From NCBI GenBank assembly GCA_003170935.1, contig PMYA01000132.1, forward strand, positions 1 to 31,820: a DNA stretch of 31,820 nucleotides, written 5' to 3'. This document shows positions 1,688 through 26,355 of this stretch, one piece after another. Origin of the DNA: Methanobacteriota archaeon. Lineage in GTDB: Archaea; Halobacteriota; Bog-38; Methanoflorentales; Methanoflorentaceae. Every line of letters starts with the position of its first letter. Position 1 is the first letter of the stretch. A program made the translations under genes and the position numbers. The notes under the pieces are model-generated. The model was not told the DNA's origin. It did not search any database and saw only the letters and a list, made by a program, of their open reading frames with translations.

Positions 1688-2353
1688 ATGGCTCACGTGC
1701 CCCTTTTTATCGATCTAAAAGACAGGTGCATCGTCATATTCGGCGGAGGGCGCGTTGGCGAGAGAAAGGCCAAGATGTTTTGCGCCTACGGGCAAACTAC
1801 AGTTATAAGCACAAGCTTTACAGCTGAATTATTAAAAATGGCAGAAAGTGGCCTAATCGACGTGATTGCAGACGACTTGAAAGATGTGAAGAAGTACCTT
1901 ACAGGTGCTTTTATCGTCGTTCCGGCAACCAACAATCGCCCCCTCAACGCGTATATCGCCGACCAAGCGAAGGCAATGAATATCCTCGTCAACCAAGTAG
2001 ATGGCATAGGCGAGGTTATCGTGCCGTCGATTATCAATAAAGACGATATCCACGTCGGGATTTCGACGATGGGGAAAAGTCCCGCATCAGCTCGATATCT
2101 CAGACTGCGTATCGAAGAGCTCATAGAAAACGTTGCCCTGATGGTGGCTCTCCAAGACAAACTGCGAACCATTTTAAAAAAGAAGATTGTTAGTCAACTC
2201 GAGCGAAAGCGCATCCTTGAAATAATTATAAACGACTCAGGAGTGTGGACCGAACTTGCGCGTAGCTACGACGCGGGACTTCAAGCGGCACTTGAGATCG
2301 TAGAAAACGAACAATTGATGCTGCAGACAAAAACAAAAGGGGGCCATACATGA
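1688..2353 (+). CDS. sirC: Precorrin-2 dehydrogenase (siroheme synthase, Met8/SirC type)
   Basis: Oxidises precorrin-2 to sirohydrochlorin with NAD+, the step that supplies both F430 and siroheme branches. The protein has 221 residues, a usual length for the single-function archaeal enzyme. An N-terminal Rossmann fold carries IFGGGRVGERKA. The segment FIVVPATNNRPLN is typical of the Met8/CysG N-terminal domain, as is the GISTMGKSPASARYLRLRIE element that leads into the helical dimerisation domain. CysG's methyltransferase half is absent; that activity is encoded by cobA later in the operon. Its stop overlaps the hemA start by four bases (ATGA), showing translational coupling. It is the first gene of a seven-gene operon. 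Confidence 0.9.
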   Translation: MAHVPLFIDLKDRCIVIFGGGRVGERKAKMFCAYGQTTVISTSFTAELLKMAESGLIDVIADDLKDVKKYLTGAFIVVPATNNRPLNAYIADQAKAMNILVNQVDGIGEVIVPSIINKDDIHVGISTMGKSPASARYLRLRIEELIENVALMVALQDKLRTILKKKIVSQLERKRILEIIINDSGVWTELARSYDAGLQAALEIVENEQLMLQTKTKGGHT

Positions 2354-3597
2354 ATGGGATATGCAACCTTTCAATAACGCACAAGTGGGCAAGCCTAAAT
2401 GACCTAGAGTGCGCACGCATTGACAACGTGGAGGGCGCATTGAAGGCGATGCACGCTACCGACGGCGTTAGCGAATGTGTTATCATACAAACCTGCAATA
2501 GGATTGAGCTCTACCTCTATGTGACGAACGAGTTCGACGTTAACTCATTTATAACGCGTTTCTTCCCATCTGTGTCGCCAGAACTCATTGGCCGATACGA
2601 GGCGCGCGAATCACTCAGGCACTTAATGCGACTGGCATCAGGCCTCGATTCTATGATTGTAGGTGAGGACCAGATACTCGGCCAGCTTAAAGAGGCGGTC
2701 GAAATAGCGACCAAAGAGGACACATTAGGTCCTGATCTGGGCTTAGCATTATCCAAAGCGATTAAAGTCGGAAAGCGTGTACGAACAGAGACGTACATCA
2801 ACCGCGGCTCAGTGTCCGTCGGCTCAGCAGCGGTTGACCTCGCCGAACGAGTCATGGGTACCCTTGAGGACAAGGCGATTCTGAGCATCGGAGCCGGTGA
2901 GCTGGGAACGCTCGTGGCGGTCGCCCTCGCCGAGCGAGAGCTCAAGGCGATGTTTTTCTCAAACCGGACCTTTCGGCGCGCGCAAACCCTCGCCAAAAGG
3001 CTTGGAGGCACTGCGGTCCGATTTGACAATATAGACGACTATCTGTGTCAAGCAGACTTGGTAATAAGCGCTACCGCAGCGCCGCACTACATACTTACCT
3101 ATGATAAAGTACGTCGCGCGATGCAACAACGACACGGCCAGTCACTCGTCATCATCGACATCGCCAATCCGCGTGACGTTGAAGAAAGTGTCGCTACGCT
3201 CGACAACGTCGACCTACACAACATCGACGATTTACGCAAGATCACCGAACAAAACCTTAAGAAGCGACGTTCCGAGATCGGAAAAGTGCTCGCGATCATT
3301 AACCAAGAGCTCGACCTGCTCGAATGGCAATACAAGAAGGATCGCGCGAATGACCTTATTGCGAGCTTGTATCAGAACGCAGAAGAGCTTAGAGCGCGCG
3401 AGCTCGAAAAAGCGTACAACCGTTTACGATGCGAGGCAGACCTAAATAACTACGAACAGATCCTTGAAGACCTTACAGGTTCAATCGTGAATAAACTACT
3501 TTTTGAGCTTACTGCATCACTCAGAGAGGCAGCCGCTAACGACGATTATGACTTGATGAGTTCAGCGCATAAACTATTCAAACGCCAGGAGGTTTAA
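2350..3597 (+). CDS. hemA: Glutamyl-tRNA reductase
   Basis: First committed step of the C5 pathway: NADPH-dependent reduction of glutamyl-tRNA(Glu) to glutamate-1-semialdehyde. The 415 residues cover all three domains. The catalytic domain contains QTCNRIEL with the nucleophilic cysteine at residue 49, and MIVGEDQILGQLK is the family signature near residue 102. The NADPH-binding domain has the glycine-rich ILSIGAGELGT. The C-terminal helical dimerisation region begins near the ITEQNLKKRR segment. It starts inside the end of the dehydrogenase gene and ends one base before the hemB ATG, so the three genes are co-translated. No unusual residues were seen. Confidence 0.97.
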   Translation: MNGICNLSITHKWASLNDLECARIDNVEGALKAMHATDGVSECVIIQTCNRIELYLYVTNEFDVNSFITRFFPSVSPELIGRYEARESLRHLMRLASGLDSMIVGEDQILGQLKEAVEIATKEDTLGPDLGLALSKAIKVGKRVRTETYINRGSVSVGSAAVDLAERVMGTLEDKAILSIGAGELGTLVAVALAERELKAMFFSNRTFRRAQTLAKRLGGTAVRFDNIDDYLCQADLVISATAAPHYILTYDKVRRAMQQRHGQSLVIIDIANPRDVEESVATLDNVDLHNIDDLRKITEQNLKKRRSEIGKVLAIINQELDLLEWQYKKDRANDLIASLYQNAEELRARELEKAYNRLRCEADLNNYEQILEDLTGSIVNKLLFELTASLREAAANDDYDLMSSAHKLFKRQEV

Positions 3598-4557
3598 ATG
3601 ACCAAGCGACCCGCACGGCTTCGTAAAAAGGGCGTCAGAAAGTTGGTCCGAGAGACGTCACTGCTCCCAAGCGATCTGATATGCCCTCTATTTGTCGATG
3701 AGAACGCACAAAAACCTATAGCTATCCCCTCCCTGCCGGGATTTTATCGTCACACCGTCGAAACGGCAGTATCTGAGGCCGAGGCGATCACGGAACTCGG
3801 TGTTCCAGCGGTCATAGTATTCGGGGTGCCACGCTCAAAAGACGAGACGGGGAGCGCTGCGCTTAGCGGCATCGTGCAAGATACTATCAGGGCGATAAAA
3901 ACGCAGGTCCCAGCAGCCACGGTCATTGCCGACGTGTGTCTGTGTGAATATACGAGCCACGGACACTGCGGCATCGTCAACGAAGATGGTACGATCCTCA
4001 ACGGCCCGACGCTTGAGATGCTACGTGGTGTCGCAACCTCATACGCTCGCGCTGGGGTCGATATCGTCGCACCTTCGGGAATGATTGACGGGATGGTCGG
4101 CGCTATACGCGCGCAGCTCGATGAGGAGCGGTTTGACGGAGTCGCGATTATGCCTTACGCAGCTAAGTACTACTCGAGCTTCTACGCACCGTTTCGCGAT
4201 GCTGTGGATTCAGGATGTGCTTTTGGAGATAGGTCCGCTCATCAAATGGACCCAGCAAATACCGACGAAGCGGTTCGTGAGGTACGTCTGGACCTAGAAG
4301 AGGGCGCCGACATTATTATGATCAAGCCCGCATTGCCTTATCTTGATATCATTTATCGAATTAAGCAGACCTTCGGCGTTCCTGTAGCCGCATATAGCGT
4401 TAGTGGAGAGTACGCAATGTTGCGAGCTGCAATAGATAACGGGAATTTGACTAATGATGCCATTCTTGAGACGCTCCTTTCCATCAAACGAGCCGGAGCC
4501 GACATGATCGTTACCTATTTTGCCAAAGAGGCGGCAAAGACCCTGGCTTATGAGTGA
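3598..4557 (+). CDS. hemB: Porphobilinogen synthase (delta-aminolevulinic acid dehydratase)
   Basis: Condenses two 5-aminolevulinate molecules to porphobilinogen. The 319-residue protein shows the zinc-dependent form: DVCLCEYTSHGHCG holds the three zinc cysteines (114, 116, 124). The two Schiff-base lysines are K190 (MPYAAKYYSSFY) and K243 (IIMIKPALPYLD). The C-terminal YSVSGEYAML element is present. The start ATG follows the hemA TAA directly, with an AGGAGG sequence overlapping the end of hemA about seven bases upstream. The stop is nine bases before the hemL ATG. Confidence 0.97.
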   Translation: MTKRPARLRKKGVRKLVRETSLLPSDLICPLFVDENAQKPIAIPSLPGFYRHTVETAVSEAEAITELGVPAVIVFGVPRSKDETGSAALSGIVQDTIRAIKTQVPAATVIADVCLCEYTSHGHCGIVNEDGTILNGPTLEMLRGVATSYARAGVDIVAPSGMIDGMVGAIRAQLDEERFDGVAIMPYAAKYYSSFYAPFRDAVDSGCAFGDRSAHQMDPANTDEAVREVRLDLEEGADIIMIKPALPYLDIIYRIKQTFGVPVAAYSVSGEYAMLRAAIDNGNLTNDAILETLLSIKRAGADMIVTYFAKEAAKTLAYE

Positions 4558-4566
4558 GAGGTGGCG

Positions 4567-5856
4567 ATGCAAACAGACGGGTCTGAGAGACTATATAAAA
4601 AAGCTTTGAAGCTCATGCCTGGTGGCGTTTCAAGCCCGGTTAGGGCGATAGATCCCTATCCGCTTTACGTCCATAAAGCAAGCGATTCGCGAATATGGGA
4701 CGTGGATGGAAACGTGTACATTGATTACTGCATGGGCTACGGCCCACTCATTCTCGGTCACGCTCACCCTGCCGTGCAGGAAGCAGTGACCCAGCGTCTA
4801 AAACTAGGATGGGACTACGGAACCCCCATTGAGGCTGAGATCGCTCTCGCAGAGCGCATTCAAAAAGACCTCCCCTCAATCGAGATGCTTCGATTCGTGT
4901 CAACGGGAACTGAGGCTACGATGAGCGCTATTCGCGCCGCCCGTGGGTTTACAGGAAAAGACATTATCGTAAAAATTGAAGGGGGCTACCATGGCGCCCA
5001 CGACGCAGTGCTCGTCAAGGCAGGATCGGCTGCAATCTCCACTGCGAGCTCACTCGGGGTGCCGGCCGAAGCTATAAAAAACACTCTTCAAGTCCCGTTC
5101 AATGACATTGATGCCCTATCTGACGTCTTAGAAAAAGCTGAACCTGGGTGCCTTATCATAGAACCGGTGATGGGGAATATTGGTCCAGTGCTGCCTGAGA
5201 CGACCTATCTCACAGAAGTTAGAAAAGTCACCGAAGAGAACGATACGCTCTTGATATTTGACGAGGTGATTACCGGATTCAGGCTGTGCACCGGAGGCGC
5301 TCAGTGTCTTTACAACGTCACTCCTGATCTCACAACGCTAGGGAAAATTGTCGGTGGCGGATTTCCGATTGGGATATTCGGAGGCAAAAAGGAGATTATG
5401 GAATGCGTTGCTCCATCAGGAGGGGTTTTTAACGCAGGTACATTCAGCGGGCATCCAGTTTCGCTTACAGCAGGAATTGCGACGCTTAACGTGCTCAACG
5501 AGGAGGGTTACAAACGCGTCAATGGTTTGGGTGACCTCCTAAGGAGGATGCTCGTCGACCTCCTCGAAGAACTTGACATCCGTGTTACGGTGCAAGGAAT
5601 CGGCACGCTGTTTCAGATCTTTTTTACCGAAAAACCCGTTAAAAACTATCAAGACGCGCTCACCAGTGACGTCGACGCTTACAAGAAATTGGCTGCTTTT
5701 ATGCGCGAAGAGGGCATTTTCTTAGCTCCTTCGCAATTCGAGACGAACTTCATCTCACTTGCACACTCAAACGAAGACGTCGAGTACACCATTCGTGCGT
5801 ACGCTAACGCGTTTAAACGGCTGTGTAACCTAGACGTCGACACTGCGGGCTACTAA
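4567..5856 (+). CDS. hemL: Glutamate-1-semialdehyde 2,1-aminomutase
   Basis: PLP enzyme that isomerises glutamate-1-semialdehyde to 5-aminolevulinate, feeding HemB. LMPGGVSSPVRA near the N-terminus is a hallmark of the family. The PLP lysine is K260 in LTTLGKIVGGGFPIG, and D232 in FDEVITGFR pairs with the pyridine nitrogen. I start it at the ATG at 4567 because a GAGGTGG ribosome binding site lies four to ten bases upstream; an in-frame GTG at 4561 overlaps that site and is less likely. The 429-residue length is normal. Gene order hemA-hemB-hemL is shuffled relative to reaction order, which is common. Confidence 0.96.
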   Translation: MQTDGSERLYKKALKLMPGGVSSPVRAIDPYPLYVHKASDSRIWDVDGNVYIDYCMGYGPLILGHAHPAVQEAVTQRLKLGWDYGTPIEAEIALAERIQKDLPSIEMLRFVSTGTEATMSAIRAARGFTGKDIIVKIEGGYHGAHDAVLVKAGSAAISTASSLGVPAEAIKNTLQVPFNDIDALSDVLEKAEPGCLIIEPVMGNIGPVLPETTYLTEVRKVTEENDTLLIFDEVITGFRLCTGGAQCLYNVTPDLTTLGKIVGGGFPIGIFGGKKEIMECVAPSGGVFNAGTFSGHPVSLTAGIATLNVLNEEGYKRVNGLGDLLRRMLVDLLEELDIRVTVQGIGTLFQIFFTEKPVKNYQDALTSDVDAYKKLAAFMREEGIFLAPSQFETNFISLAHSNEDVEYTIRAYANAFKRLCNLDVDTAGY

Positions 5857-5883
5857 CCCCAATAACGACCGCAAACAACTGGT

Positions 5884-5895
5884 AGGGCGTGATCT
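5884..5895 (+). promoter_or_regulatory. Strong Shine-Dalgarno site of hemC
   Basis: AGGGCGTGATCT matches nine of twelve bases of the ideal complement to archaeal 16S rRNA (AGGAGGTGATCC). It sits just before codons ATA (5898) and CTG (5901) of the hemC frame, and 38 bases before the first conventional start codon, TTG at 5934. Its position argues that translation begins at a non-canonical codon. Confidence 0.65.
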
Positions 5896-5900
5896 AAATA

Positions 5901-6791
5901 CTGCGTATTGGCACCAGAGGCAGCAAACTCGCATTGGTTCAAGCTAAGATGGTCAAGAGCTTACTCGCCAAGAATGGCGTTGAAAGCGAGCTCATCATCG
6001 TTCAAACGAGCGGCGATAATTTTGCCGATAAGCCCTTCCGAGAGGCAGGTATTGGCGCATTTGTGAGAGATATCGACGACCTCATGCTTAAGGGCGAGAT
6101 CGATATTGCTGTGCATAGCATGAAGGACGTACCCACAAAAAGGCCAAAAGAGATTGGCATCTGTGCCGTTATGCCACGTGCAGCCCCATACGATGTTTTA
6201 ATTTTCGAGCGTTCGTTGCCTAAAGGAGCTACTATAGGTACCTCGAGCTTGCGACGACAGGCGCAACTTGCTCGATATTATCCATCCTACAACCGCAAAC
6301 AGATTCGGGGCAACGTCGACACGCGAATAAGAAAACTAAGGGCAAACGAGTTCGACGCGGTGATTCTCGCCAAGGCGGGACTAGACCGTCTCGGCATTAG
6401 CATCAAAAAGAAACGTTTACCATTCATTCCATCACCAAACCAAGGGATTATCGCCGTGATGGCGAATCAGGAAAGTGACGATTTCGATATAGTCGCTAAG
6501 ATCAATGACGAGCAAACATTTATTGAAGGCATGGTTGAGCGAGTTATAATGGAGACTTTAGGAGGTGGGTGCCTAGTCCCCCTAGGCATTTTGGCGCACC
6601 TAGACAGTGAGTGGGTGAACGTCGTTGCCGAGGTGCTCTCGCTCGATGGAAAACGTATAGTGCATCTTACCGATCGCATACCTATTGATAGCTACGAACG
6701 AGCCTCGAAAGAGTTCGCCCAAAGAATGAAAGAAGACGGAGCAGCCTCGTTGATTGCTGAAGCTGTTGTATCTGTTTCAGCGCTTGACTGA
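5901..6791 (+). CDS. hemC: Hydroxymethylbilane synthase (porphobilinogen deaminase)
   Basis: Polymerises four porphobilinogens to hydroxymethylbilane. The cofactor-attachment cysteine lies in LGGGCLVPLG, and the family blocks AVHSMKDVP, IGTSSLRRQAQL and RGNVDTRIRKL are all intact. The first ordinary start in frame, TTG at 5934, would remove the conserved RIGTRGSKLAL segment with its active-site arginine. That segment is encoded upstream from CTG at 5901, with an in-frame TAA at 5895-5897 closing the frame. I therefore place the start at CTG 5901 (ATA 5898 is the alternative), supported by the ribosome binding site at 5884-5895. This gives 296 residues, normal for the family. A sequencing error that destroyed an ATG cannot be excluded. 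Confidence 0.92.
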   Translation: MRIGTRGSKLALVQAKMVKSLLAKNGVESELIIVQTSGDNFADKPFREAGIGAFVRDIDDLMLKGEIDIAVHSMKDVPTKRPKEIGICAVMPRAAPYDVLIFERSLPKGATIGTSSLRRQAQLARYYPSYNRKQIRGNVDTRIRKLRANEFDAVILAKAGLDRLGISIKKKRLPFIPSPNQGIIAVMANQESDDFDIVAKINDEQTFIEGMVERVIMETLGGGCLVPLGILAHLDSEWVNVVAEVLSLDGKRIVHLTDRIPIDSYERASKEFAQRMKEDGAASLIAEAVVSVSALD

Positions 6792-6809
6792 AAAAGGAAA
6801 CAAAAAAAC

Positions 6810-7565
6810 ATGTCTGAAGGGAAGGTGTTCTTAGTAGGGGCAGGACCTGGTGACCCAGGCCTATTGACCCGAAAAGCCGAACGAATCATAAAAAGCGCTG
6901 ATATTGTTCTCTACGACAAACTTGTCGATGACCGAGTAATCGCGCTTGTTCCTAGAAAGGTAGAGCTTATAGACGTGGGGAAGGACCCGAACCACCATAA
7001 GGTTCCACAGCATAAGATCAATGATCTGCTTGTCAAATACGCGAAAAAGGGCAAGACGGTAGTACGGCTTAAAGGTGGCGACCCCTACGTATTCGGTCGC
7101 GGTGGAGAGGAGGCCGAAGAGTTAGTCGCCCATGGAATCGATGTGGAGATAGTTCCCGGTATTTCATCAGCCGTGGCGGTTCCAGCGTATGTAGGTATCC
7201 CTGTTACGCACCGAAAGTACGCTTCCACATTTACTATCGTCACGGGCCACGAGGCCACGGGCAACGAGCTTAAGTGGGATGTTCTCGCTCAACTAGATGG
7301 CACGCTCGTTATCCTGATGGGCGTAGGCGCCCTCAAAGAGAACGTTGCGAATCTTATAGCTTTTGGCAAGCCTGCGCAAACACCGGCAGCGATCATTGCA
7401 CAAGGAACTACCAGCCGCCAAAAAGTCGTTTTAGGCACCTTAGATGACATAGCAATCAAAGCTGAAACAGCCAACGTGGAAGCTCCAGCGGTGCTAGTTG
7501 TCGGTGACGTTGTAAAACTCGCAAACAAATTAAGACCCCAATATGCAGACACTAGCGATCATTAG
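6810..7565 (+). CDS. cobA: Uroporphyrinogen-III C-methyltransferase (SUMT)
   Basis: Adds two SAM-derived methyl groups to uroporphyrinogen III, giving precorrin-2, the substrate of the dehydrogenase encoded first in this operon. Signature blocks are VFLVGAGPGDPGLLT at the N-terminus, VVRLKGGDPYVFGRGGEE, PGISSAVAVPAYVGIPVTHR, and a late AIIAQGTTSRQK segment. The 251 residues fit the single-domain SUMT form without a fused HemD or CysG half. An AAGGAAA ribosome binding site lies upstream of ATG 6810. The 3' end overlaps hemD by 23 bases, so the two are probably coupled. Confidence 0.96.
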   Translation: MSEGKVFLVGAGPGDPGLLTRKAERIIKSADIVLYDKLVDDRVIALVPRKVELIDVGKDPNHHKVPQHKINDLLVKYAKKGKTVVRLKGGDPYVFGRGGEEAEELVAHGIDVEIVPGISSAVAVPAYVGIPVTHRKYASTFTIVTGHEATGNELKWDVLAQLDGTLVILMGVGALKENVANLIAFGKPAQTPAAIIAQGTTSRQKVVLGTLDDIAIKAETANVEAPAVLVVGDVVKLANKLRPQYADTSDH

Positions 7566-8316
7566 ACCTGATAGACAACTAGAGGATTCAAAAAAAGTCG
7601 TCGAAGCCTTCGGTTATAGAGCGTTGGCAACCTCTATGGTCGATATCACCCCTATAAGCGGCTCGCTTTGGTCCACTTTCTTAGACGACCTAGCGAAAGG
7701 CGAGGTGGACTACCTAATACTCACGAGCGCAAACGGTGCACGTATTTGTGCGCAGCTCGGACTCAACGCTGCTAGCATCCCTAAATCCACGCGCGTCGTG
7801 GCCATAGGACCCGCAACCAGATCTGCGTTGCTTAAAGAGCAGCTTCGCGTTGATCTTATGCCGTCAGAGTATAGCTCACACGGCATCGTTCGGACGCTCA
7901 GCAACATAGCAGGAAAAAAAATCTGGGTCTTACGCAGCGCTTATGGCAGCTCTGAACTAATCCAAGGTCTTAAGAAAGGCGGCGCAGCCGTTAACGAAGT
8001 CGTGCTTTATACGCTTAAAAAGCTCTGTGGTCCACTTCAACGAAACTTTATACTGGAGGTAACAGAAGGTGATGTGGCGGGCGTGCTATTTACGAGCGCC
8101 ATGACGGTAAAGGCTTTTTTTGACTGCGCTGACCTAATGGGAACTCGCGACCGGCTCATCGCACGACTCGCGCATCAACTCGTTGGGGCTATTGGAATTC
8201 CTACAGCCGATGCGCTTCGTTCGTACAATGTGGAAGTCGACGCTTTACCAAAAGACGCCACATTCAGTGCGCTAGTCTCAGTAGCACATGCAGCCCTGAA
8301 GAATCGCGCATTGTAG
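7543..8316 (+). CDS. hemD: Uroporphyrinogen-III synthase
   Basis: Closes hydroxymethylbilane to uroporphyrinogen III with inversion of ring D. HemD proteins diverge strongly, so the call rests on the two-lobed pattern plus context. YLILTSANGARICAQL and RVVAIGPATRSAL mark lobe one, GVLFTSAMTVKAFF marks lobe two, and AIGIPTADALRSYNVEVD matches the usual IGxxTAxAxxxxG near the end. At 257 residues it is complete. It begins inside cobA and is the last gene of the operon. Downstream lies the convergent cfb cluster. Confidence 0.92.
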   Translation: MQTLAIIRPDRQLEDSKKVVEAFGYRALATSMVDITPISGSLWSTFLDDLAKGEVDYLILTSANGARICAQLGLNAASIPKSTRVVAIGPATRSALLKEQLRVDLMPSEYSSHGIVRTLSNIAGKKIWVLRSAYGSSELIQGLKKGGAAVNEVVLYTLKKLCGPLQRNFILEVTEGDVAGVLFTSAMTVKAFFDCADLMGTRDRLIARLAHQLVGAIGIPTADALRSYNVEVDALPKDATFSALVSVAHAALKNRAL

Positions 8317-12898: not shown

Positions 12899-13120
12899 TA
12901 AACTCCTCCAACTAGTGTGTGCGAATTGTTCTTTTTGATATTTAACGGTAAAGCTCACCGAACATAGCGCGATTAAGCTCGAATACGTGGTTAGGTATTT
13001 TTGGATAGCATCAGCCAATTTGGGGAGCCTCTTCATGGGGATGCCGACTATAAGTTGATTTTCGCTCACTTTTGCGTATTTGCGAGAACATAAGCTCACA
13101 GAAAATTATGCTTAGATCAT

Positions 13121-13137
13121 CTATCATGAAATGATAG
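13121..13137. repeat. Perfect 7-bp hairpin at the end of the cbiZ remnant
   Basis: CTATCAT, a GAA loop, then ATGATAG form a perfect inverted repeat next to the stop codon of the cbiZ remnant. It could be a processing or termination structure on the minus-strand transcript between that remnant and cfbA. No T-run follows. Confidence 0.5.
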
Positions 13138-13309
13138 CTGCCGCTTATCCACGTCATCGGTCCCATAACAAGCCTTTAATGCTTCTTTTACCCCCGCTCT
13201 AACAAGTTTCGCAACCCTACTTCCAAACGGGGTGGCAGGTCCGCCGTATAAAATCGGGTCATCCTCGTTACTGTTTTTATATGCGATAATAATCGCATCG
13301 CTCGTCGTA

Positions 13310-13473
13310 CCTGTGAATTGCAGTCCTTTGTCGATCAGGGCGCGCGTCTTTGCTTCCGTGGCGGTAATTATCGTCCCTGCGATCGCTCCTTCGCTCAACG
13401 TTTCAGATGATATGACGATTATGTTTATAGTGCCAAATGACGATGGGTTCGTGAGCCCCGCAGTCACAAAAAC
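13310..13473. repeat. Near-identical 164-bp tract, copy 1
   Basis: Matches 15808-15971 at 163 of 164 positions; the one difference is T at 13327 against C at 15825, leaving 146 bases of perfect identity from 13328. Flanking homologous sequence on the left differs much more (by eye about a quarter of positions), so identity ends sharply. Confidence 0.92.
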
Positions 13474-13486
13474 GCGGCAATCAATT

Positions 13487-14806
13487 CTATGAGCGAGAAT
13501 AAGCGTTAGCGTTTGCGACAAACAAATTGAACTCGTGCGGCATCGAATAGGCGTGCGCGTGGAGATATGACGCCACGACATTGCCCTCTACGATGCCATC
13601 GCGTCCATCGATTCCGTCACCTTGTAACACGCGATAGACGAATCGCGCGTCAGCATCAACGGATGCAGTCGAGTAGTGATATTCGTGTCCGCGAAGGATA
13701 TCGCCGCTGCGCGCAATTGCACAATCCTCGATGGCCTCTACTGCGACGTGTCCCAATGCTTGTCTTTTCTTTGTCATTTGGACGTCCAACGGGAGCACGT
13801 TTCCAAGTGAGACTCTTTTGCCCTCAACCGTGGACAGTGAGCGCGAGAGGAACATAAGCCCCCCGCACTCGCCGTACATAGGCATGCCGTCTTCTGCGTT
13901 CGATTTAACGTCTTTAAGAAGGTGCCTATTGGTGCTCAATTGTGTGGCATAGAGTTCGGGATAGCCGCCGCCGAAGTACAACCCATCTACCTCGGGCAGC
14001 GCGTCGTGAATCGGAGAGAAATAGACCACTTGTGCACGCTTTTGTATCGATTCGATGTTTGAACGATAATAGAAGCAAAATGCGGCGTCGTATGCGATCC
14101 CGATCAGTGTATCGGTTGTGTGACGTAGCTCCTCCGGCTTATCGACCGTGATCTGCGTCGCTACCCGTTGGATGGACTCGATATCGAGTGAGTCGTAGAT
14201 TGACTTCAAGGTAGCGTGTGGCAACGACGTTTCGGACCCCATGTACAGTCCGAGGTGCCGTGACGGAATTCCTTCAACGTCCGTAGCAACGACTCCCATG
14301 AGCGGGACATTTATCGCAGCTAACGCCCGGCGAATGCTTTCAGCATGTTTTTGACTGCCGACGCGGTTTGCTATGATCCCAGCGATCGTCAGTCGGTAAG
14401 GGGTGTAAGAAGAATACTTGATGAACCCCAAGGCCTGTGCCGCAACGCTTTCAGAAGAAGCGCTCGCGTCAATCACAAGAAGAACCGGGACTCGTAGGAT
14501 GTCTGCAATCTTAGCGTCGCTTGATATCCCGTCGTACATGCCCATCGCCCCTTCTATGACTGCATAGTCCGCGTTACATTTTGCAAGCTCTCTCTTGATG
14601 CCTTCCTCACCCATCATGAACGAATCTAGATTGTAGCACGGTGCGTTGGTCACCCTTTCGAGGTGACTTGGATCGATATAATCTGGACCGACTTTGTAGG
14701 ACTGAACGCTGTATCCTGAGTCCTTAAGCGCTTTCAGGATGGCGAGTGTAATTGTGGTCTTTCCGATCCCGCTTTGAGTTCCAGCAACGAGGAGGCCGTG
14801 CATCAC
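13487..14806 (-). CDS. cbiA: Cobyrinate a,c-diamide synthase family protein (CbiA/CobB)
   Basis: Glutamine-dependent amidation of the a and c side chains of a corrin or related ring. The P-loop GTQSGIGKTT is at residues 9-18, then YKVGPDYIDPSHL and CYNLDSFMM, the GPDYIDP form usual in cobalamin-type CbiA. The class I-like glutaminase domain has YGECGGLMFL and a histidine pair in YLHAHAYSMP. At 439 residues it is complete. It is separate from cfbB, which has the F430-type motif, so I infer a cobalamin role; without biochemistry the two paralogues cannot be assigned with certainty. Upstream, TATA-like sequences near 14826-14849 and a GGGTG sequence touching the ATG suggest it starts a transcript. 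Confidence 0.88.
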   Translation of the reverse strand: MMHGLLVAGTQSGIGKTTITLAILKALKDSGYSVQSYKVGPDYIDPSHLERVTNAPCYNLDSFMMGEEGIKRELAKCNADYAVIEGAMGMYDGISSDAKIADILRVPVLLVIDASASSESVAAQALGFIKYSSYTPYRLTIAGIIANRVGSQKHAESIRRALAAINVPLMGVVATDVEGIPSRHLGLYMGSETSLPHATLKSIYDSLDIESIQRVATQITVDKPEELRHTTDTLIGIAYDAAFCFYYRSNIESIQKRAQVVYFSPIHDALPEVDGLYFGGGYPELYATQLSTNRHLLKDVKSNAEDGMPMYGECGGLMFLSRSLSTVEGKRVSLGNVLPLDVQMTKKRQALGHVAVEAIEDCAIARSGDILRGHEYHYSTASVDADARFVYRVLQGDGIDGRDGIVEGNVVASYLHAHAYSMPHEFNLFVANANAYSRS

Positions 14807-15629: not shown

Positions 15630-15633
15630 TTAC
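15611..15633. repeat. Inverted repeat at the cbiZ stop codon
   Basis: GTAATG at 15611-15616 pairs with CATTAC at 15628-15633, enclosing an 11-base loop and overlapping the cbiZ stop. It may act as a 3'-end hairpin on the minus-strand transcript. A hairpin of different sequence sits in the same place in the truncated copy. Confidence 0.45.
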
Positions 15634-16226
15634 AGGGACCATTTGTTAACGTCATCGCTCCCATAATGAGCCTTTAATGCTTCTTTTACCCCCAATCTAA
15701 CGAGTTTGGCAACCCTGCGTCCAAAAGGGGTGGCAGGTCCGCTATATAAAATCGGCTCACCTTCGCCAGTGCCGTCATATGCGACTACAATAGCATCACT
15801 TGTCGTGCCTGTGAATTGCAGTCCCTTGTCGATCAGGGCGCGCGTCTTTGCTTCCGTGGCGGTAATTATCGTCCCTGCGATCGCTCCTTCGCTCAACGTT
15901 TCAGATGATATGACGATTATGTTTATAGTGCCAAATGACGATGGGTTCGTGAGCCCCGCAGTCACAAAAACCGTAACGCACGCATCGCTCAAAATCCGTA
16001 CGTGTTTCATCTCAACTGCAGTGAGAAGCGCGACGTAGCCCCCCTCAAGCGTCATTGATGCTGCCATTCCCTCAACGTAGCTCTTCGGATCGTCGTGAGA
16101 AAAATTGTGGGGTACTTGGATGTTTAGGATATTGTTTACCGCTCTTCTGCCGCCGTCGACACCACTGCTTAGGGCTTCAAAGTTGCCTTTTAGCACTAAG
16201 ACCCGGTCGAATACCTCATATTCCAC
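15630..16226 (-). CDS. cbiZ: Adenosylcobinamide amidohydrolase
   Basis: Hydrolyses the aminopropanol side chain of adenosylcobinamide (and pseudocobalamin forms) to adenosylcobyric acid, letting the cell salvage imported corrinoids. The 198-residue protein has LSSGVDGGRRAVNNI in the N-terminal part, VFVTAGLTNPSS in the middle and GTTSDAIVVAY plus SGPATPFGRRVAKLVR near the end, all CbiZ blocks. The start is GTG at 16226 with AAGGTGA six bases upstream. It lies 36 bases after btuD, at the end of an uptake operon, which fits a salvage role. A truncated copy lies 2.5 kb downstream. Confidence 0.92.
   Translation of the reverse strand: MEYEVFDRVLVLKGNFEALSSGVDGGRRAVNNILNIQVPHNFSHDDPKSYVEGMAASMTLEGGYVALLTAVEMKHVRILSDACVTVFVTAGLTNPSSFGTINIIVISSETLSEGAIAGTIITATEAKTRALIDKGLQFTGTTSDAIVVAYDGTGEGEPILYSGPATPFGRRVAKLVRLGVKEALKAHYGSDDVNKWSL
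15808..15971. repeat. Near-identical 164-bp tract, copy 2 (inside cbiZ)
   Basis: Partner of 13310-13473 in the same orientation, 2,498 bases away. Identity ends abruptly at 15971, where the truncated copy loses homology. Confidence 0.92.
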
Positions 16227-19884: not shown

Positions 19885-20182
19885 GCAAGCAGGCGCCAAA
19901 AGTGAGGCGTACTCGTGAAGCGTTGTCAAAGTGTGTTGTCTCGTTTGCAGTTTCATGGTCCAAAGAGTCTAACACCGTTCTGAAATGACGGAACATTGGC
20001 GATTAATACTTTCATCCTTCTTTCGGACAATACATACAGCTTTAAAGAAAGAGACAAAACACCCCTAACTTTATCGTACAGTTGGGTGGATTTCCTTCGA
20101 AGCTACGTGCTTTAACAGGGCAGTACGCGCTTTGGGGGGCTGGAGGCGTTATTACACACGTATTAATCGAGCAGGTGCAGGG

Positions 20183-21937
20183 ATGACCCATCGAAGCGTT
20201 TCGCCGCCGTACGAGTATGTCACCACTGAAGGGCACCTTGCCGCCATCCTTGAGCGTATCGCGCCTTCGTCGGTTATGGCTATAGCGCTCGGAACCACGG
20301 GCCCTGACACCTTTGTTGACCGCATACGGGCCCTCCAATTGGCAGTACCCGATCACCCCCCGGTAGTTATTGATTGTGCCCAGGTGCCTCAAGGGGGATT
20401 GGCGAAGCTGCAGGAGCTCTTTGAGCTCCCGGTCGTCAAGGTAGTGCATAACGGAAAGCTCGCCCTCAAGTTCCTCTGTCAGGCCGGATTCGACCTATCC
20501 AGTCTATATTTTGATACGATGCTTGCCTCGCAACTGCTTAGTGGTGGGTTGATGGATGTACGACACGATCTGAAAACCGTGGCAAAGGCATATCTTGACG
20601 AGTACTTGCCGGAAACGTGCGGCATTATTCGGGCCGCCTCCCTTACCGATAAGCAGCTTCGAAGTGCCGGACAAACGGTCAGCGCGGTCTTGAGCCTCCA
20701 TGCGGCGTTATCCGAGCGCATCGCGAGCGCCGGCCTCACCGACTGCATGCGTTTAGAGTGCAACTGCCTCCCTGCGGTTGCGGCAATGGAGTGCAACGGC
20801 ATGCTCATGGATATGGGGCAATGGCGAACGTTGCAGGACACATATAACGAGTTAGAGGAGAGTCTCGCGCATGAGGTGCGCCGGGAGCTGACGACGTCGG
20901 GGCAGCGTACCCTCGGTGACGTTGCCGCCATCAATCTCGGTAGCCCCCATCAGGTGAAACATGCCCTCAGAAGCGCCGGGGTTCCAGTTCGCAACGTCCG
21001 CGAGGACGAGTTGATCAAGTATGAGGAGGACCATCCCGCAATCCCTTATTATATTCGCTACAAGCACGTCTTAAAGCTCAAAAACGGCTTTTTGGATGCA
21101 CTTCCCCGGCACGTCAATCCGTTGACGGGGAGGGTACACCCTACCTTTCTTCAGGTCGGCACGGTAAACGGGAGATTCGCATGCCGCGACCCTAACCTGC
21201 AGCAAATTCCGATAGACGGGGCGGTGAGGGGGTGTTTCGTTGCGGCACGCGACCATCGTCTTGTAATCGCCGACTACGCCCAATTTGAGCTGCGTGTCAT
21301 AGCGGACATCAGCGGCGACGAGACCATGACGCGGGCGTTCCAACGAGGGGAGGACTTACACAAGCTGACCGCATCGCTCGTGCTCGATACGCCCCTTGAC
21401 CAGGTGACGAAGGACGAGCGCCTTATCGCAAAGGTGCTGAACATCGGTCTTATCTACGGAATGGGCGCACGGAGCTTACGGCGATACGCGAATTACATCT
21501 ACGGTGTCCACTTCACCCTCGAAGATGCGTATGAATTTCGTAGGCGTTTCTTTGATGCGTACTCAGGCGTGCGGGCGTTCCACCGGCGTATGGGCACCAC
21601 GCCACTGGTATCTGTCCGGACCCTTAGTGGGAGAATACGTAGGTGGGCAGACGGCCAAGATCCAAAGCTGACTGAACTGCTGAACACCAGGGTACAAGGG
21701 ACTGCCGCGGATATTATGAAACAGGCCGTAACCTCCCTCCACGAAGCGCTTAGTGCGAGAGCTAAAATCGTCTGCTGTGTGCACGACGAGTTGCTGGTCG
21801 AAGCGCCACAGGCACGCGCTGCCGAGGTCGCTGAGACCGTCGCCTACCAAATGCGAGCGGCGGGGAATGAGTTTTTGCGAAATGTCCCCCTTGACGTTGA
21901 CGTGGCGATTGCCCGGAGCTGGGCAGGGAAGGCGTAA
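20183..21937 (+). CDS. polA: Family A DNA polymerase with degenerate 3'-5' exonuclease domain
   Basis: DNA-dependent DNA polymerase of the Pol I family, unusual in archaea. No 5'-nuclease domain is present. Residues 1-185 align with the 3'-5' exonuclease fold but its catalytic acids are gone: the DxE of motif I is AxG (A35, G37 in AIALGTTG), motif II HNxKxD is HNGKLA (A94), and the motif III YxxxD is lost. The polymerase domain looks functional: RDPNLQQIP (335-343), motif A DYAQFELR (D364), motif B RLIAKVLNIGLIYG with K417 and Y425, motif C VHDE (D535). Motif B has isoleucine where Pol I has phenylalanine 762. ATG 20183 follows AGGTG; an upstream TTG at 20132 is less likely. GC content seems higher than in neighbouring genes. 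The repair genes that follow suggest gap filling. Confidence 0.93.
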   Translation: MTHRSVSPPYEYVTTEGHLAAILERIAPSSVMAIALGTTGPDTFVDRIRALQLAVPDHPPVVIDCAQVPQGGLAKLQELFELPVVKVVHNGKLALKFLCQAGFDLSSLYFDTMLASQLLSGGLMDVRHDLKTVAKAYLDEYLPETCGIIRAASLTDKQLRSAGQTVSAVLSLHAALSERIASAGLTDCMRLECNCLPAVAAMECNGMLMDMGQWRTLQDTYNELEESLAHEVRRELTTSGQRTLGDVAAINLGSPHQVKHALRSAGVPVRNVREDELIKYEEDHPAIPYYIRYKHVLKLKNGFLDALPRHVNPLTGRVHPTFLQVGTVNGRFACRDPNLQQIPIDGAVRGCFVAARDHRLVIADYAQFELRVIADISGDETMTRAFQRGEDLHKLTASLVLDTPLDQVTKDERLIAKVLNIGLIYGMGARSLRRYANYIYGVHFTLEDAYEFRRRFFDAYSGVRAFHRRMGTTPLVSVRTLSGRIRRWADGQDPKLTELLNTRVQGTAADIMKQAVTSLHEALSARAKIVCCVHDELLVEAPQARAAEVAETVAYQMRAAGNEFLRNVPLDVDVAIARSWAGKA

Positions 21938-22599: not shown

Positions 22600-23358
22600 A
22601 TGAAGCAATGGTACGAAGAACTATTCGAAAACTCAGCGAAGTCATATGACCAACAGCCGTTTGTCAAGGGCACACACGGCGAAGTTGACTTCATAGAAGA
22701 AGGGCTCGGATTTAATAGAAGCGCCACCATCTTGGACATAGGGTGTGGAACTGGTCGACACGCCATTGAACTTGCAAAAAGAGGGTACACCGTAACCGCC
22801 GTTGATTTGTCCGCGTCGCAGTTGGACCTTGCGCGCGAGAAAGCCGTAGCAGCAAACGTGACTGTTCAGTTTGTGGAAGCCGACGCTTGCCATCTTAACT
22901 ATAGCGGTCAATTTGACGCTGTGATTATAGTTTGTGAGGGTGCGTTTCCTTTAATGGAAACGGACGAGATGAATTTTGAGATATTAAAGAACGCATTCCG
23001 TGCACTCAGACAAGGCGGCGTGTTTATCCTTACCACGCTGAATGGGTTATTTCCTTTATTCCATTCTGTCAGGGACTACATTAACGAGCATCAAGATCAC
23101 GACAGCATCAAGGCGAGTACGTTCGATCTTTTGACGTTTCGAGACTATTTAGAATATAAACTCGTTGACGACGACGGAAACAAGCGCCCAATCAAATGCA
23201 ACCAGCGCTACTACGTTCCGTCTGAAATTATGTGGCTGCTAAAAATGGTCGGGTTCTCAGCCATCGACATATATGCGGCTGAACTCGGAAATTGGAGCCG
23301 CGACAAAAAACTGACCACAGAAGATTTGGAAATGTTAATGGTTACAAGAAATGAGTAA
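22600..23358 (+). CDS. Class I SAM-dependent methyltransferase (NHEJ operon)
   Basis: A 252-residue soluble enzyme. Motif I is TILDIGCGTGRHAIELAKRG, then TAVDLSASQLDLAREKA, with the acidic adenine contact VQFVEADACHL; FDAVIIVCEGAFPLM is the region after motif II. The N-terminal QWYEELFENSAKSYD is typical of small-molecule methyltransferases. AAAGGAG lies nine bases before ATG 22600. Only 24 bases separate its stop from the Ku ATG, so it probably shares the repair operon's transcript. Whether it acts on DNA, protein or a metabolite cannot be told; no target-recognition domain is visible. Confidence 0.85.
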   Translation: MKQWYEELFENSAKSYDQQPFVKGTHGEVDFIEEGLGFNRSATILDIGCGTGRHAIELAKRGYTVTAVDLSASQLDLAREKAVAANVTVQFVEADACHLNYSGQFDAVIIVCEGAFPLMETDEMNFEILKNAFRALRQGGVFILTTLNGLFPLFHSVRDYINEHQDHDSIKASTFDLLTFRDYLEYKLVDDDGNKRPIKCNQRYYVPSEIMWLLKMVGFSAIDIYAAELGNWSRDKKLTTEDLEMLMVTRNE

Positions 23359-23382
23359 GAGGATCGCAAAGGGTGCGTGAAA

Positions 23383-24147
23383 ATGAAATCATTGTGGAAA
23401 GGATCAATTGCGTTTGGACTTGTGAACATTCCCATAAAACTTTACTCAGCGATCGAACAAAAGCCACTTAAAACGCGGCTCTTGCACAAAGATAAGCTCT
23501 CACCGATACGATATAAGAAATGGTGCGACGCGTGCACCGAAGAGGTACCATCAGATGAGATTGTACGAGGTATCGAGGTTGCCCCTGACCAATATGTCGT
23601 CATCAGCGAAGACGAGCTCCGATCCATCAGACCGGAAAAATCAACACGGATAGAGATCGTCGAGTTTATCGACTCCCATCAAATCGACCCCATCTTTTTC
23701 AACGCCCATTACTACGCTGGTCCGGAAAGGCCGAAGGACAAGACATATTTCCTGTTTAGAGACGTGCTTCGCCAGACTGCCAAGACCGCCATTGGCAAGT
23801 TTGTCTTGCGGGACAAAGAGCATGTGTGCGCGATCGAAGCATATCGAGAGGCGTTACTTTTAACGACGCTGAACTACGAATACGAAATTAGGGACATCAC
23901 GCGAGTCGACGGTCTTGCGGAAGAGCCGCCAATTTCGCAAGCGGAAATGGATCTGGCGAGACAACTGCTCAATCAGATCACCGTCGATGAGTTTGACATC
24001 ACGCAGTTTCACGACACGTTTGAGGACGAGCTCCGGCAACTCGTTGCGAAAAAAGCTAGGGGTGAAACAATTAGCGTCCAAAAGGTCGAATACCACGCGA
24101 CTCCCGAAGAGAACCTCATCGAAGCGTTAAAGGCAAGCCTCAAATGA
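23383..24147 (+). CDS. ku: Ku DNA end-binding protein
   Basis: Homodimeric ring that binds double-strand DNA ends and recruits LigD in non-homologous end joining. The 254 residues start MKSLWKGSIAFGLVNIPIKL, the hallmark of bacterial-type Ku, followed by KWCDACTEEVPSDEIVRGIE and YYAGPERPKDKTYFLFRDVL. The Ku core beta-barrel ends in the LARQLLNQI helix, and the short C-terminal tail (about 40 residues) lacks the lysine-rich extension of some bacteria. I take ATG at 23383; GTG at 23377 is in frame but leaves no room for a ribosome binding site. The stop overlaps the ligase gene start by four bases. Confidence 0.97.
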   Translation: MKSLWKGSIAFGLVNIPIKLYSAIEQKPLKTRLLHKDKLSPIRYKKWCDACTEEVPSDEIVRGIEVAPDQYVVISEDELRSIRPEKSTRIEIVEFIDSHQIDPIFFNAHYYAGPERPKDKTYFLFRDVLRQTAKTAIGKFVLRDKEHVCAIEAYREALLLTTLNYEYEIRDITRVDGLAEEPPISQAEMDLARQLLNQITVDEFDITQFHDTFEDELRQLVAKKARGETISVQKVEYHATPEENLIEALKASLK

Positions 24148-25019
24148 TGCTTGCAGCCACCGGCACGCGTGAGACTCTGCGATCAAAGTCGTACATCTTC
24201 GAGCCTAAGCTGGATGGTTATCGGGCGCTCTGCCTAAAAAGGGGAGGGACGTTACAATTCATGTCACGAAACAACCGGGACATCACCCCTGAGTTTCCGG
24301 AACTCGCGTTTGGCGATCTCATTAAGTCCGACTGCATGCTCGATGGCGAGATCGTAATTTACGATGAGAAGGGGAACCCCTCGTTTGCGTTGATGCAGCA
24401 ACGAAAGCACCTCCGTCCGCCGCCTACCTACGTCGCTTTTGACATACTTGAGCTGGAAGGCCGGGATCTGCGCGGGCTGCCGCTGTCAGAGAGGAAGAAG
24501 CTTCTTTTGGAGACCGTCAAGGAGGGGGGGAACCTGCAGACGATGCCAAGCACCGAAAATGGGGAGGAACTCTGGAACGTCATTACGGCAAGGGGCCTTG
24601 AAGGAGTGATGGCAAAGAAAAAGGACAGCATCTACATCACTGGGCGATCCCGTGCTTGGCTTAAAATCAAGTTCGAAAAAACGGTCGATTGCGTTATCGT
24701 CGGGTATGCGACGAAGACGAGGGAGATCGCCTCGTTGGCGCTTGGATTGTATAACGCGGCGACCCTTACATATGTTGGACAGGTCGGCACCGGATTTAGC
24801 GAGTCGCTCCTTGAAAGACTAAGCAAGGAGCTCGTCCGGGCGAGCAACGACGCTGCTCTTCCCAAGAATGTACACCCCGTCGTTCCTGAGAAGGTGTGCG
24901 AGGTCAAGTACCTTGAGTATACGAAGGACGGTCGGCTAAGGGCGCCTGTGTTCTTGCGGATACGGGACGATAAGCCCCCAAGAGAATGCACGATAGATCA
25001 GGTGACAAAAGGTGCTTGA
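24144..25019 (+). CDS. ligD: LigD-type ATP-dependent DNA ligase (stand-alone ligase domain)
   Basis: Seals strand breaks during Ku-dependent end joining. Adenylation lysine K22 lies in FEPKLDGYRA; motif III appears as LDGEIVIYD and YVAFDILELEG, motif IV as GLEGVMAKKKDS and motif V as WLKIKF. An OB-fold follows, ending in CEVKYLEYTKDGRLRAPVFLR. At 291 residues it is a bare nucleotidyltransferase plus OB domain, as in the ligase part of LigD. In most bacteria this domain is fused to polymerase and phosphoesterase; here they are in the next gene, whose GTG start overlaps this stop by eight bases. Confidence 0.95.
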   Translation: MMLAATGTRETLRSKSYIFEPKLDGYRALCLKRGGTLQFMSRNNRDITPEFPELAFGDLIKSDCMLDGEIVIYDEKGNPSFALMQQRKHLRPPPTYVAFDILELEGRDLRGLPLSERKKLLLETVKEGGNLQTMPSTENGEELWNVITARGLEGVMAKKKDSIYITGRSRAWLKIKFEKTVDCVIVGYATKTREIASLALGLYNAATLTYVGQVGTGFSESLLERLSKELVRASNDAALPKNVHPVVPEKVCEVKYLEYTKDGRLRAPVFLRIRDDKPPRECTIDQVTKGA

Positions 25020-26355
25020 GGACTACCGGAAAAAAAGGGATTTTACAAAGACCGCTGAACCAGCGCCTGAACAGTTGAAAAGCGAACAAGCGATCTACGT
25101 CGTGCAGAAACATAACGCGAGGCGAATCCACTTTGACTTGCGTCTTGAGCATAATGGCGTCCTGAAGAGCTGGGCGGTTCCCAAAGGGCTCTCAGACGAC
25201 CCGCAGGACAAGCGGCTCGCGATCAGGACCGAGGATCATCCCGTTGCATATGCTACGTTTTCAGGTACGATCCCTGAAGGAGAGTACGGCGCAGGAACCG
25301 TCGAAATATGGGACAAGGGCAAGTTTGTCAACATTACCGTTAAGGGCAGCAAGGTTCAGCCCCTTAGTGAAGCGCTGGAAAAGGGACACTTCATCATCTA
25401 TCTGAAGGGCGAAAAGCTCGACGGGTCCTATGCATTCACACGAATTGAAAACGACGAGTGGATCATCGTCAAAAAAAGAGAGAAGCCTCCCCGGAGCGCC
25501 GAAATAGACGTAGGGGGGCACCACATCAAGATAACTCATCCTGAAAAAGAGCTCGATAAGGGGATAAGAAAAGCAGAGCTTGTGGAATACTATCGCAATG
25601 TCGCACCGTTGATGCTGCCCCATGTTAAGGATCGCTTCCTCTCAATGTTCAGATTTCCCGAAGGGGTGCGCGGAGAGAAGTTCTTCCAAAAGAACATTCC
25701 TGACTATTTTCCAGATTGGATTGAAAGCAAGTGTCTTGAACACGAAAGCGGCGTGACCTGCTATGCGATCGTTAAAGACGAAGCAGCGATCGTCTACATC
25801 AGTAATCAGGTTGTTGTGCCCCACATCACGGTCACACGAATTGACAAACCTGACCTTCCCGACAAGATGATATTTGACCTAGATCCGTCTCGACCTGATG
25901 TGTCATCGCTCAAGTCAGCCGCACTCAAGTTGAAGGGCTTCCTGGAGGCTTTAGGCTTTAGATCGTACATCATGACAACAGGTGGCAAGGGCTACCACGT
26001 TGCCGTGCCCGTTAAGCGCGAGCTTGATAATAGAGGCGTCCGAAATTTTGCTCTAAAGATCGCTCAGACCCTCGCAAAGCAAGACGATACTGTAACGACC
26101 GACCTGAGAGTGGAAAAAAGGGAGGGACGGATCTTTATAGACGTAAACAGGATATCACCGATGCAGACCTCTGTAGCGCCGTTTGCCGCACGGTCAGAAC
26201 CAGGGCTTCCTGTTGCGAGCCCGTTTCCTTGGGACGAGCTGCCAAACATCGACCCGCGATCGTACTCTATCCGGAATCATCTGAAAGTGGACGCTTGGAG
26301 CGACTTCTTTGCAAGCGCCGTATCAGTACTGGATGTAATCGAGAAGCTTACTTAA
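25012..26355 (+). CDS. ligD: LigD 3'-phosphoesterase-polymerase fusion (PE-Pol)
   Basis: End-processing enzyme of NHEJ with two domains. Residues about 20-160 are the phosphoesterase, with H34, H40, D42 and R44 in VQKHNARRIHFDLRLEH, SWAVPKG, and H76 in TEDHPVAY. Residues about 165-445 are an archaeo-eukaryotic primase-type polymerase: catalytic DLD at 289-291, GGKGYHV at 324-330, and a third acid, D377, in FIDVNR followed by PMQTSVAPFAARSE. All key residues are present. The start is GTG at 25012 with AGGTGA nine bases before. Known LigD orders are Pol-PE-Lig and PE-Lig-Pol, and Methanocella has the parts separate; a Lig gene followed by PE-Pol differs from all of these. Confidence 0.94.
   Translation: MLEDYRKKRDFTKTAEPAPEQLKSEQAIYVVQKHNARRIHFDLRLEHNGVLKSWAVPKGLSDDPQDKRLAIRTEDHPVAYATFSGTIPEGEYGAGTVEIWDKGKFVNITVKGSKVQPLSEALEKGHFIIYLKGEKLDGSYAFTRIENDEWIIVKKREKPPRSAEIDVGGHHIKITHPEKELDKGIRKAELVEYYRNVAPLMLPHVKDRFLSMFRFPEGVRGEKFFQKNIPDYFPDWIESKCLEHESGVTCYAIVKDEAAIVYISNQVVVPHITVTRIDKPDLPDKMIFDLDPSRPDVSSLKSAALKLKGFLEALGFRSYIMTTGGKGYHVAVPVKRELDNRGVRNFALKIAQTLAKQDDTVTTDLRVEKREGRIFIDVNRISPMQTSVAPFAARSEPGLPVASPFPWDELPNIDPRSYSIRNHLKVDAWSDFFASAVSVLDVIEKLT

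What the first reader, a model, noticed from the sequence alone, without database searches (positions are those of the whole stretch)
22600..26355. Archaeal NHEJ operon with an unusual LigD split: Ku, then Lig, then a PE-Pol fusion
The sequence shows Ku, a stand-alone ligase and a phosphoesterase-polymerase in one tight operon (overlaps of 4 and 8 bases). All catalytic residues are intact. Known arrangements are Pol-PE-Lig (mycobacteria), PE-Lig-Pol (Pseudomonas) and fully separate parts (Methanocella). Lig followed by PE-Pol resembles a three-domain Lig-PE-Pol protein split at the domain border. NHEJ is rare in archaea, so this is a useful natural variant.
Basis: partly seen in the sequence, partly recalled or inferred. 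Interest (0 to 1): 0.7.

Follow-up and report, generated by a model that had tools for sequence, protein, structure and literature searches.

The report
Three-gene DNA break-repair operon in methanogens
This methanogen carries a compact, complete-looking kit for rejoining broken DNA ends, divided among three proteins in a way that is fixed in its small group and that belongs to a little-described branch of the bacterial/archaeal repair-ligase family.

Summary
Ku (23377-24147), a ligase (24144-25019, 4-base overlap) and a phosphoesterase-polymerase fusion (25012-26355, 8-base overlap) lie in line on the + strand; family cut-offs are passed and catalytic residues intact. The host is a methanogen of a class with 7 held genomes in one genus, very probably GTDB Bog-38/Methanoflorens. 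All 7 have Ku|Lig|PE-Pol with the same 8-base overlap, so the split is no sequencing error. None of the 385 other sampled genomes of the phylum shows a PE-Pol protein. Methanocella-like sequences lie in other clades. Unexpectedly, the nearest other kin of this Ku and ligase is a natural Ku-ligase fusion protein in an ANME-1-like family. A new variant of a known kind.

The parts
23377..24147 (+). Ku end-binding protein, 254-256 aa (ATG 23383 or GTG 23377); beta-barrel core plus a short C-terminus
   Evidence: TIGR02772 264 bits against cut-off 150; Pfam Ku; three solved prokaryotic-type Ku sequences match; clade with Ku of Ku-Lig fusions 100/98
24144..25019 (+). Stand-alone NHEJ ATP-dependent DNA ligase, 291 aa, adenylation lysine K22 in motif EPKLDG, C-terminal (OB) domain present
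   Evidence: TIGR02779 257 bits against cut-off 228; PF01068 and PF04679; aligned to M. tuberculosis LigD ligase 1vs0; clade with fused Lig-PE-Pol 100/98
25012..26355 (+). PE-Pol fusion, 447 aa, GTG start: 3'-phosphoesterase then primase-polymerase
   Evidence: AlphaFold2 model pLDDT 89, pTM 0.80; Foldseek best hits 5dmu (Pol) and 5dmp (best PE hit), both M. paludicola
25012..25482 (+). PE domain (residues 1-157); H34, H40, D42, R44, H76, Y80 invariant
   Evidence: TIGR02777; invariant columns in the 24-sequence alignment A2; naming these as the active-site set is recalled from P. aeruginosa PE work
25525..26283 (+). Pol domain (residues 172-424); D289, D291, H329, D377 invariant
   Evidence: PF21686 232 bits; invariant columns; aligned to 5dmu; naming these as catalytic is recalled
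25000..25005 (+). AGGTGA, a Shine-Dalgarno-like stretch 6 bases before the PE-Pol start, inside the ligase gene; CAGGTG kept in 7 of 7 genomes
   Evidence: sequence; junctions; the archaeal anti-SD is recalled, and the same bases also encode the conserved Q-V of the ligase end

Best explanation
A complete archaeo-prokaryotic NHEJ system encoded as a translationally coupled three-gene operon. Ku binds a broken DNA end as a homodimer. It recruits the separate ligase and the separate PE-Pol protein: Pol fills gaps (preferring ribonucleotides), PE trims 3'-phosphates and excess ribonucleotides, and Lig seals. The Lig / PE-Pol border is the linker of a Lig-PE-Pol protein. The three proteins are a distinct lineage of the system, not derived from the Methanocella-like or haloarchaeal-type versions. 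Shown here: gene order, intact residues, conservation, phylogeny. Inferred from studied relatives: the biochemical steps, homodimer, recruitment by Ku, and separate, coupled translation.
For: Family matches over cut-offs. Catalytic positions invariant and aligned to solved M. paludicola, P. aeruginosa and M. tuberculosis enzymes. The same Ku|Lig|PE-Pol order and 8-base overlap in 7 of 7 genomes. Purifying selection on all three genes. Fused Lig-PE-Pol proteins exist and are the closest ligase kin (100/98) and share the polymerase clade (100/98, 34 of 68 rows) and phosphoesterase clade (97/86, 32 of 67 rows). The fused form P0047 reads ECTADQLQVEQPLADYKKKRDF where the window reads ECTIDQVTKGA-stop and MLEDYRKKRDF, so the break falls in the linker. 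The mechanism is established for homologues (PMC4797286, and PMC9638933: passages).
Against: No biochemical or expression data for this lineage. TIGR02778 is passed by only 0.1 bit. Direction (split from fused or the reverse) is not resolved: on the tree the label needs at least 4 changes, and the root is not inferred. The fused proteins have almost no organism names, and their neighbours could not be read. In the PE tree many inner branches are weak and 2 of 21 PE-Pol proteins (P0070, P0099) fall outside the clade.
Confidence: 0.9

Rival explanations
1. The split is an assembly or sequencing error in a gene that really encodes a fused Lig-PE-Pol protein.
For: A relative, P0035 (88% identical over 72% of the query), reads from the ligase end into PE; both its termini look frame-disrupted and it sits on one contig.
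Against: The same 8-base overlap with stop and start occurs in 7 of 7 genomes, two of which match records of different peat studies. Of the 34 best database relatives (P0001-P0034), 33 are PE-Pol proteins of 446-456 aa and one is 432 aa.
Confidence: 0.01
2. Programmed +1 frameshifting at the overlap makes some Lig-PE-Pol fusion alongside the separate proteins.
For: The two frames overlap by 8 bases in the +1 register in all 7 genomes; fused homologues show that the joined protein is viable.
Against: No conserved slippery sequence: the bases before TGCTTGA differ between genomes (by eye), and PE-Pol has its own Shine-Dalgarno-like stretch and start codon.
Confidence: 0.04
3. The genes serve base-excision or single-strand-break repair (LigC/Prim-PolC-like) rather than double-strand-break joining.
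For: Orthologous LigC complexes act in excision repair (PMC5663958, start of abstract in the listings); Prim-PolC is among the structural matches.
Against: Ku is the first gene of the same overlapping operon in 7 of 7 genomes, and PE is present.
Confidence: 0.05

Closest known systems
Methanocella paludicola AP-NHEJ (Ku, Lig, Pol, PE)
   Same: Same four activities; solved Pol 5dmu and PE 5dmp are the best structural matches.
   Different: Its Lig and Pol fall among bacterial PE|Lig|Pol genes, not with Bog-38.
Pseudomonas aeruginosa-type LigD (PE-Lig-Pol)
   Same: All three domains; PE structure aligns.
   Different: One protein and another order; different Lig and Pol clades (with PE-Lig-Pol proteins as stand-ins).
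Mycobacterium tuberculosis LigD (Pol-PE-Lig)
   Same: All three domains; its Lig and Pol structures align.
   Different: One protein and another order; Pol-PE-Lig proteins, used as stand-ins, fall in other clades.
Fused Lig-PE-Pol proteins of public sequence data (10 found)
   Same: Same domain order and same Lig, Pol and PE clades.
   Different: One polypeptide of 714-753 aa; host organisms unnamed except one label 'Acidobacteriota'.
Ku-Lig fusion of an ANME-1-like family (f5)
   Same: Nearest other Ku (100/98) and nearest other ligase group (96/93).
   Different: Ku and ligase in one protein of 629-667 aa; no PE or Pol match in the three genomes with a complete fusion.

Membership tests
Archaeo-prokaryotic NHEJ (AP-NHEJ) | Ku of the bacterial/archaeal type | tested here: met
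   TIGR02772 264 bits, cut-off 150
Archaeo-prokaryotic NHEJ (AP-NHEJ) | NHEJ-type ATP-dependent ligase with adenylation lysine and C-terminal OB domain | tested here: met
   TIGR02779 257 bits, cut-off 227.75; DNA_ligase_A_M and A_C; K22 aligned to 1vs0
Archaeo-prokaryotic NHEJ (AP-NHEJ) | LigD-type 3'-phosphoesterase with intact active site | tested here: met
   TIGR02777 191 bits, cut-off 144; six positions, recalled as the active site, invariant
Archaeo-prokaryotic NHEJ (AP-NHEJ) | LigD-type primase-polymerase with catalytic aspartates | tested here: met
   PF21686 232 bits; TIGR02778 214.8 against 214.7; D289/D291/D377 invariant
Archaeo-prokaryotic NHEJ (AP-NHEJ) | Ku-dependent joining of double-strand breaks by these proteins | not testable with these tools
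   needs biochemistry
LigD (single multidomain protein) | Lig, PE and Pol in one polypeptide | tested here: not met
   two ORFs in different frames in 7 of 7 genomes
Lig-PE-Pol clade | common ancestry of Lig, Pol and PE with fused Lig-PE-Pol proteins | tested here: met
   Lig 100/98; Pol 100/98; PE 97/86; roots not inferred

The most novel reading that the evidence does not exclude
Bog-38 preserves the unjoined form of a third, independent line of prokaryotic NHEJ whose genes stand in the order Ku-Lig-PE-Pol. Related lineages fused neighbours along that order at different borders: Ku-Lig in ANME-1-like archaea, Lig-PE-Pol elsewhere, PE-Pol in Bog-38. These fusions are natural evidence that Ku, Lig and PE-Pol act as one complex, and the Ku-Lig protein would be a one-polypeptide end-joining machine.
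Probability: 0.5. Interest if true: 0.65.

Novelty: new variant of a known kind. Interest (0 to 1): 0.45.

Why it matters
It gives a tractable split version of LigD in which ligase can be titrated apart from the end-processing enzyme, and adds the order Lig-PE-Pol to Pol-PE-Lig, PE-Lig-Pol and Lig-Pol. Together with the Ku-Lig fusion it makes a testable case that Ku touches the ligase directly: M. tuberculosis Ku core binds both Lig and Pol in vitro (PMC9638933, abstract and passages). It also shows that this archaeal phylum holds at least three separate NHEJ lineages, so Methanocella should not stand for all archaea.

Tried and rejected
Rejected: sequencing error, frameshifting and LigC-like function (see rivals). 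Tried without gain: AlphaFold2 of the Ku-Lig fusion gave a useless model (pLDDT 42, 7 sequences). Viral contigs: 51 loci from 48 contigs; 42 loci had only a PE match, 8 also a ligase match (L261 and L263 with Ku beside PE-Lig(-Pol); several weak), and one (L267) a PE-Pol protein of 461 aa with no Ku or Lig found in its 8 kb. Plasmid search: 619 records, all under 60% identity, 20 listed; where annotated, the listed rows are ligD; the best row (H1, Streptomyces, L319) has PE and Pol in separate frames. Literature searches for 'Lig-PE-Pol' with LigD, 'Ku-ligase fusion' (0 occurrences in the 7 papers listed), Methanoflorens with end joining and ANME-1 with non-homologous end joining found no paper with the phrase or pair; this covers only the held open-licence library. 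One search, a broader search, listed 12 papers, none on such fusions by title or start of abstract.

Dropped before counts: P0035 was left out of the trees and of the count of fused proteins. The Pol tree used 139 rows chosen from a larger set (for example 10 random PE-Lig-Pol of 144). Careful trees used chosen subsets: 57 rows (Lig), 68 (Pol), 39 (Ku), 67 (PE). The careful Ku tree leaves out, among others, the long rows L140, L145 (the Ku of G023), L261 and L315; in the quick Ku tree L140 and L312 stood loosely near the Bog-38 group and long branches met. Seven genomes with weak Pol matches (G029, G052, G086, G096, G106, G207, G257; 73 bits or less) were not counted as LigD-type Pol. For G681 genome search gives one 697-aa frame over PE and Pol, but my translation shows a stop between them, so I counted it as separate.
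Full report
WHAT IS THERE. Three ORFs stand in line on the + strand: Ku 23377-24147, ligase 24144-25019, PE-Pol 25012-26355. The Ku/Lig overlap is ATGA (4 bases) and the Lig/PE-Pol overlap is 8 bases. All four domains pass their NCBIfam cut-offs, Pol only by 0.1 bit; Pfam gives Pol 232 bits against 27.

RESIDUES AND FOLD. Solved relatives align over the domains: M. paludicola Pol (5dmu) and PE (5dmp) and P. aeruginosa PE for PE-Pol, M. tuberculosis LigD ligase for Lig, three solved prokaryotic-type Ku sequences for the first 226-231 residues of Ku. In a 24-sequence alignment the positions H34, H40, D42, R44, H76, Y80 (PE) and D289, D291, H329, D377 (Pol) are invariant; that these are the catalytic sets is recalled. 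The AlphaFold2 model of PE-Pol has mean pLDDT 89 and pTM 0.80; Foldseek ranks 5dmu first and 5dmp as best PE hit.

HOST. The genome has McrA (996 bits), so it is a methanogen or a near relative. The class has 7 held genomes in one genus. GTDB genus Bog-38 is Methanoflorens stordalenmirensis, a peat methanogen (PMC10805028, passages); PMC10873845 names Bog-38 beside classes (passages). That the window is Bog-38 is my inference.

CONSERVATION. All 7 genomes have Ku|Lig|PE-Pol in the same order (for six, for the window). The 8-base overlap is present in 7 of 7; the ATGA overlap in 6 of 7, while G004 would use GTG or a later ATG. dN/dS against the window is 0.028-0.133 in the 16 of 17 comparisons that gave a value; one Ku comparison had saturated dS (PE-Pol of G006 is cut by the contig end and was not used). 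A CAGGTG stretch before the PE-Pol start is kept in 7 of 7, but it also encodes conserved residues. Separate, probably coupled translation is therefore the likeliest reading. No conserved slippery site was seen.

HOW COMMON. In 392 sampled genomes of the phylum, 28 have a Pol match; 21 have a full LigD-type Pol (over 200 bits): 7 in a PE-Pol frame, all in this genus; 13 with Pol alone (291-332 aa frames; G319 has two copies); 1 as Pol-PE (G125). Ku matches in 64 of 392 and PE in 152 of 392, most listed ones in frames too short for a second domain. Of 32 loci read outside the genus, 6 have Pol|Ku|Lig-PE, 4 have Pol|Ku|PE, 7 have Ku and Lig side by side without Pol, and 3 have a complete Ku-Lig fusion; the rest are other or incomplete. 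In the phylum of the Nanoarchaeota record L025, 41 of 237 genomes match PE-Pol and 1 (G419) has it in one frame, with no Lig found in 10 kb. In the phylum of the TM6 record L013, 54 of 101 match; of 16 loci fetched, 4 have PE-Pol in one ORF, none of them with a ligase in the stretch held. In the phylum of the Buchananbacteria record L024, 29 of 239 match, with no PE-Pol frame in the list. Of 23 loci named by their records (L005-L027), 11 have separate PE|Lig|Pol genes. In the protein database the 120 best of 3894 hits are 109 PE-Pol, 8 Lig-PE-Pol (P0035 included) and 3 Pol. So PE-Pol is common in the environment, while the three-gene operon with Ku was seen only here; the contigs of the database proteins could not be read, so this is a lower bound. 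[quoted passage not shown]

SPLIT OR FUSED. Ten fused Lig-PE-Pol proteins (714-753 aa) were found, not counting the frame-disrupted P0035. The linker of P0047 matches the window's border. Trees: Lig of Bog-38 plus fused Lig-PE-Pol form one clade (100/98, 15 of 57 rows; SH-aLRT 99, 17 of 104 rows). Pol of Bog-38 lies in a clade of only PE-Pol and Lig-PE-Pol proteins (100/98, 34 of 68 rows; SH-aLRT 100, 59 of 139 rows). PE agrees, more weakly (97/86, 32 of 67 rows; 2 of 21 PE-Pol rows fall outside). Within the Pol clade the joined and split states need at least 4 changes, so the border is labile and the direction is open. Methanocella-like Pol and Lig sit with bacterial PE|Lig|Pol genes and haloarchaeal-type Pol with another group: three lineages in one phylum. 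'Haloarchaeal-type' is my guess for families f11, f21, f23, f30 and f36.

THE SISTER LINEAGE. Ku and Lig of Bog-38 share the same nearest other kin: a Ku-Lig fusion protein in family f5 (Ku 100/98, together with one metagenomic Ku; Lig 96/93). Calling it a sister assumes that the root lies outside both; roots were placed at the midpoint. Holding Bog-38 Ku with the f4/f31 Ku genes is rejected (p-AU 0.0105; the grouping was chosen after the quick tree was seen, so the p-value is optimistic). Seven full-length fusions (629-667 aa) are in the protein database and three in sampled genomes, two of which are also among the seven; G311 and G136 have incomplete copies. The f5 McrA (L321) matches 3sqg at 1139 bits against 691 for the next; that 3sqg is the ANME-1 enzyme is recalled. 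A 2025 survey states that prokaryotic Ku, except in Streptomyces coelicolor, has only the core domain (PMC11936186, passages), and my searches showed no report of such a fusion.

HOW IT WORKS. By homology (PMC4797286, and PMC9638933: passages), Ku binds ends and recruits the enzymes, Pol adds ribonucleotides, PE trims, Lig seals. None of this was measured for this lineage. Splitting Lig from PE-Pol means the ligase must be brought in by Ku or DNA; the Ku-Lig fusion in the related lineage fits a direct Ku-Lig contact.

VERDICT. It is a new variant of a known system; the Ku-Lig fusion found along the way may deserve more attention than the split itself.

Noticed in passing
L143:2827-4797 (G057), L142:1337-3340 (G075), L144:2330-4279 (G188); proteins P0229-P0235: Natural Ku-DNA ligase fusion proteins (Ku about residues 1-252, ligase about 257-600, plus a conserved C-terminal tail of about 55 residues) in an ANME-1-like family; no PE or Pol match in those three genomes. 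Possibly a one-protein end-joining machine.
   Followed up: partly
20132-21937 (+): Family A DNA polymerase with 3'-5' exonuclease domain (PRK14975-like), rare in this phylum: 6 of 7 genomes of the genus and 6 of 209 others sampled, one of those six below the cut-off. It lies about 1.4 to 8.2 kb upstream on the same strand as the NHEJ operon in 5 of 5 genomes with both on one contig (G000, G001, G002, G003, G006); shared acquisition or function is possible, but so is general synteny.
   Followed up: partly
G000:C7:2295-2648 (L002): A second, stand-alone PE (151-aa frame); a second PE match is present in all 7 genomes of the genus.
   Followed up: no
L126, L128, L129, L133, L135, L138: Pol | Ku | Lig-PE operons: a fusion that joins the ligase to PE but leaves Pol separate, the complementary split to the window's; 17 further Lig-PE proteins among those, one labelled Bathyarchaeota.
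   Followed up: partly
13117-13581 and 15630-16226 (-): Two ORFs share an identical protein run (VTAGLTNPSSFGTINIIVISSETLSEGAIAGTIITATEAKTRALIDKGLQFTGTTSDAI), one of them short in front; looks like a recent partial duplication of an adenosylcobinamide amidohydrolase-like gene (family name from memory).
   Followed up: no
1688-8316 (+): A long tetrapyrrole-synthesis cluster by reading (siroheme synthase-like, hemA, hemB, hemL, hemC, cobA, hemD), next to F430/cobalamin-type genes on the other strand; names are by recall.
   Followed up: no
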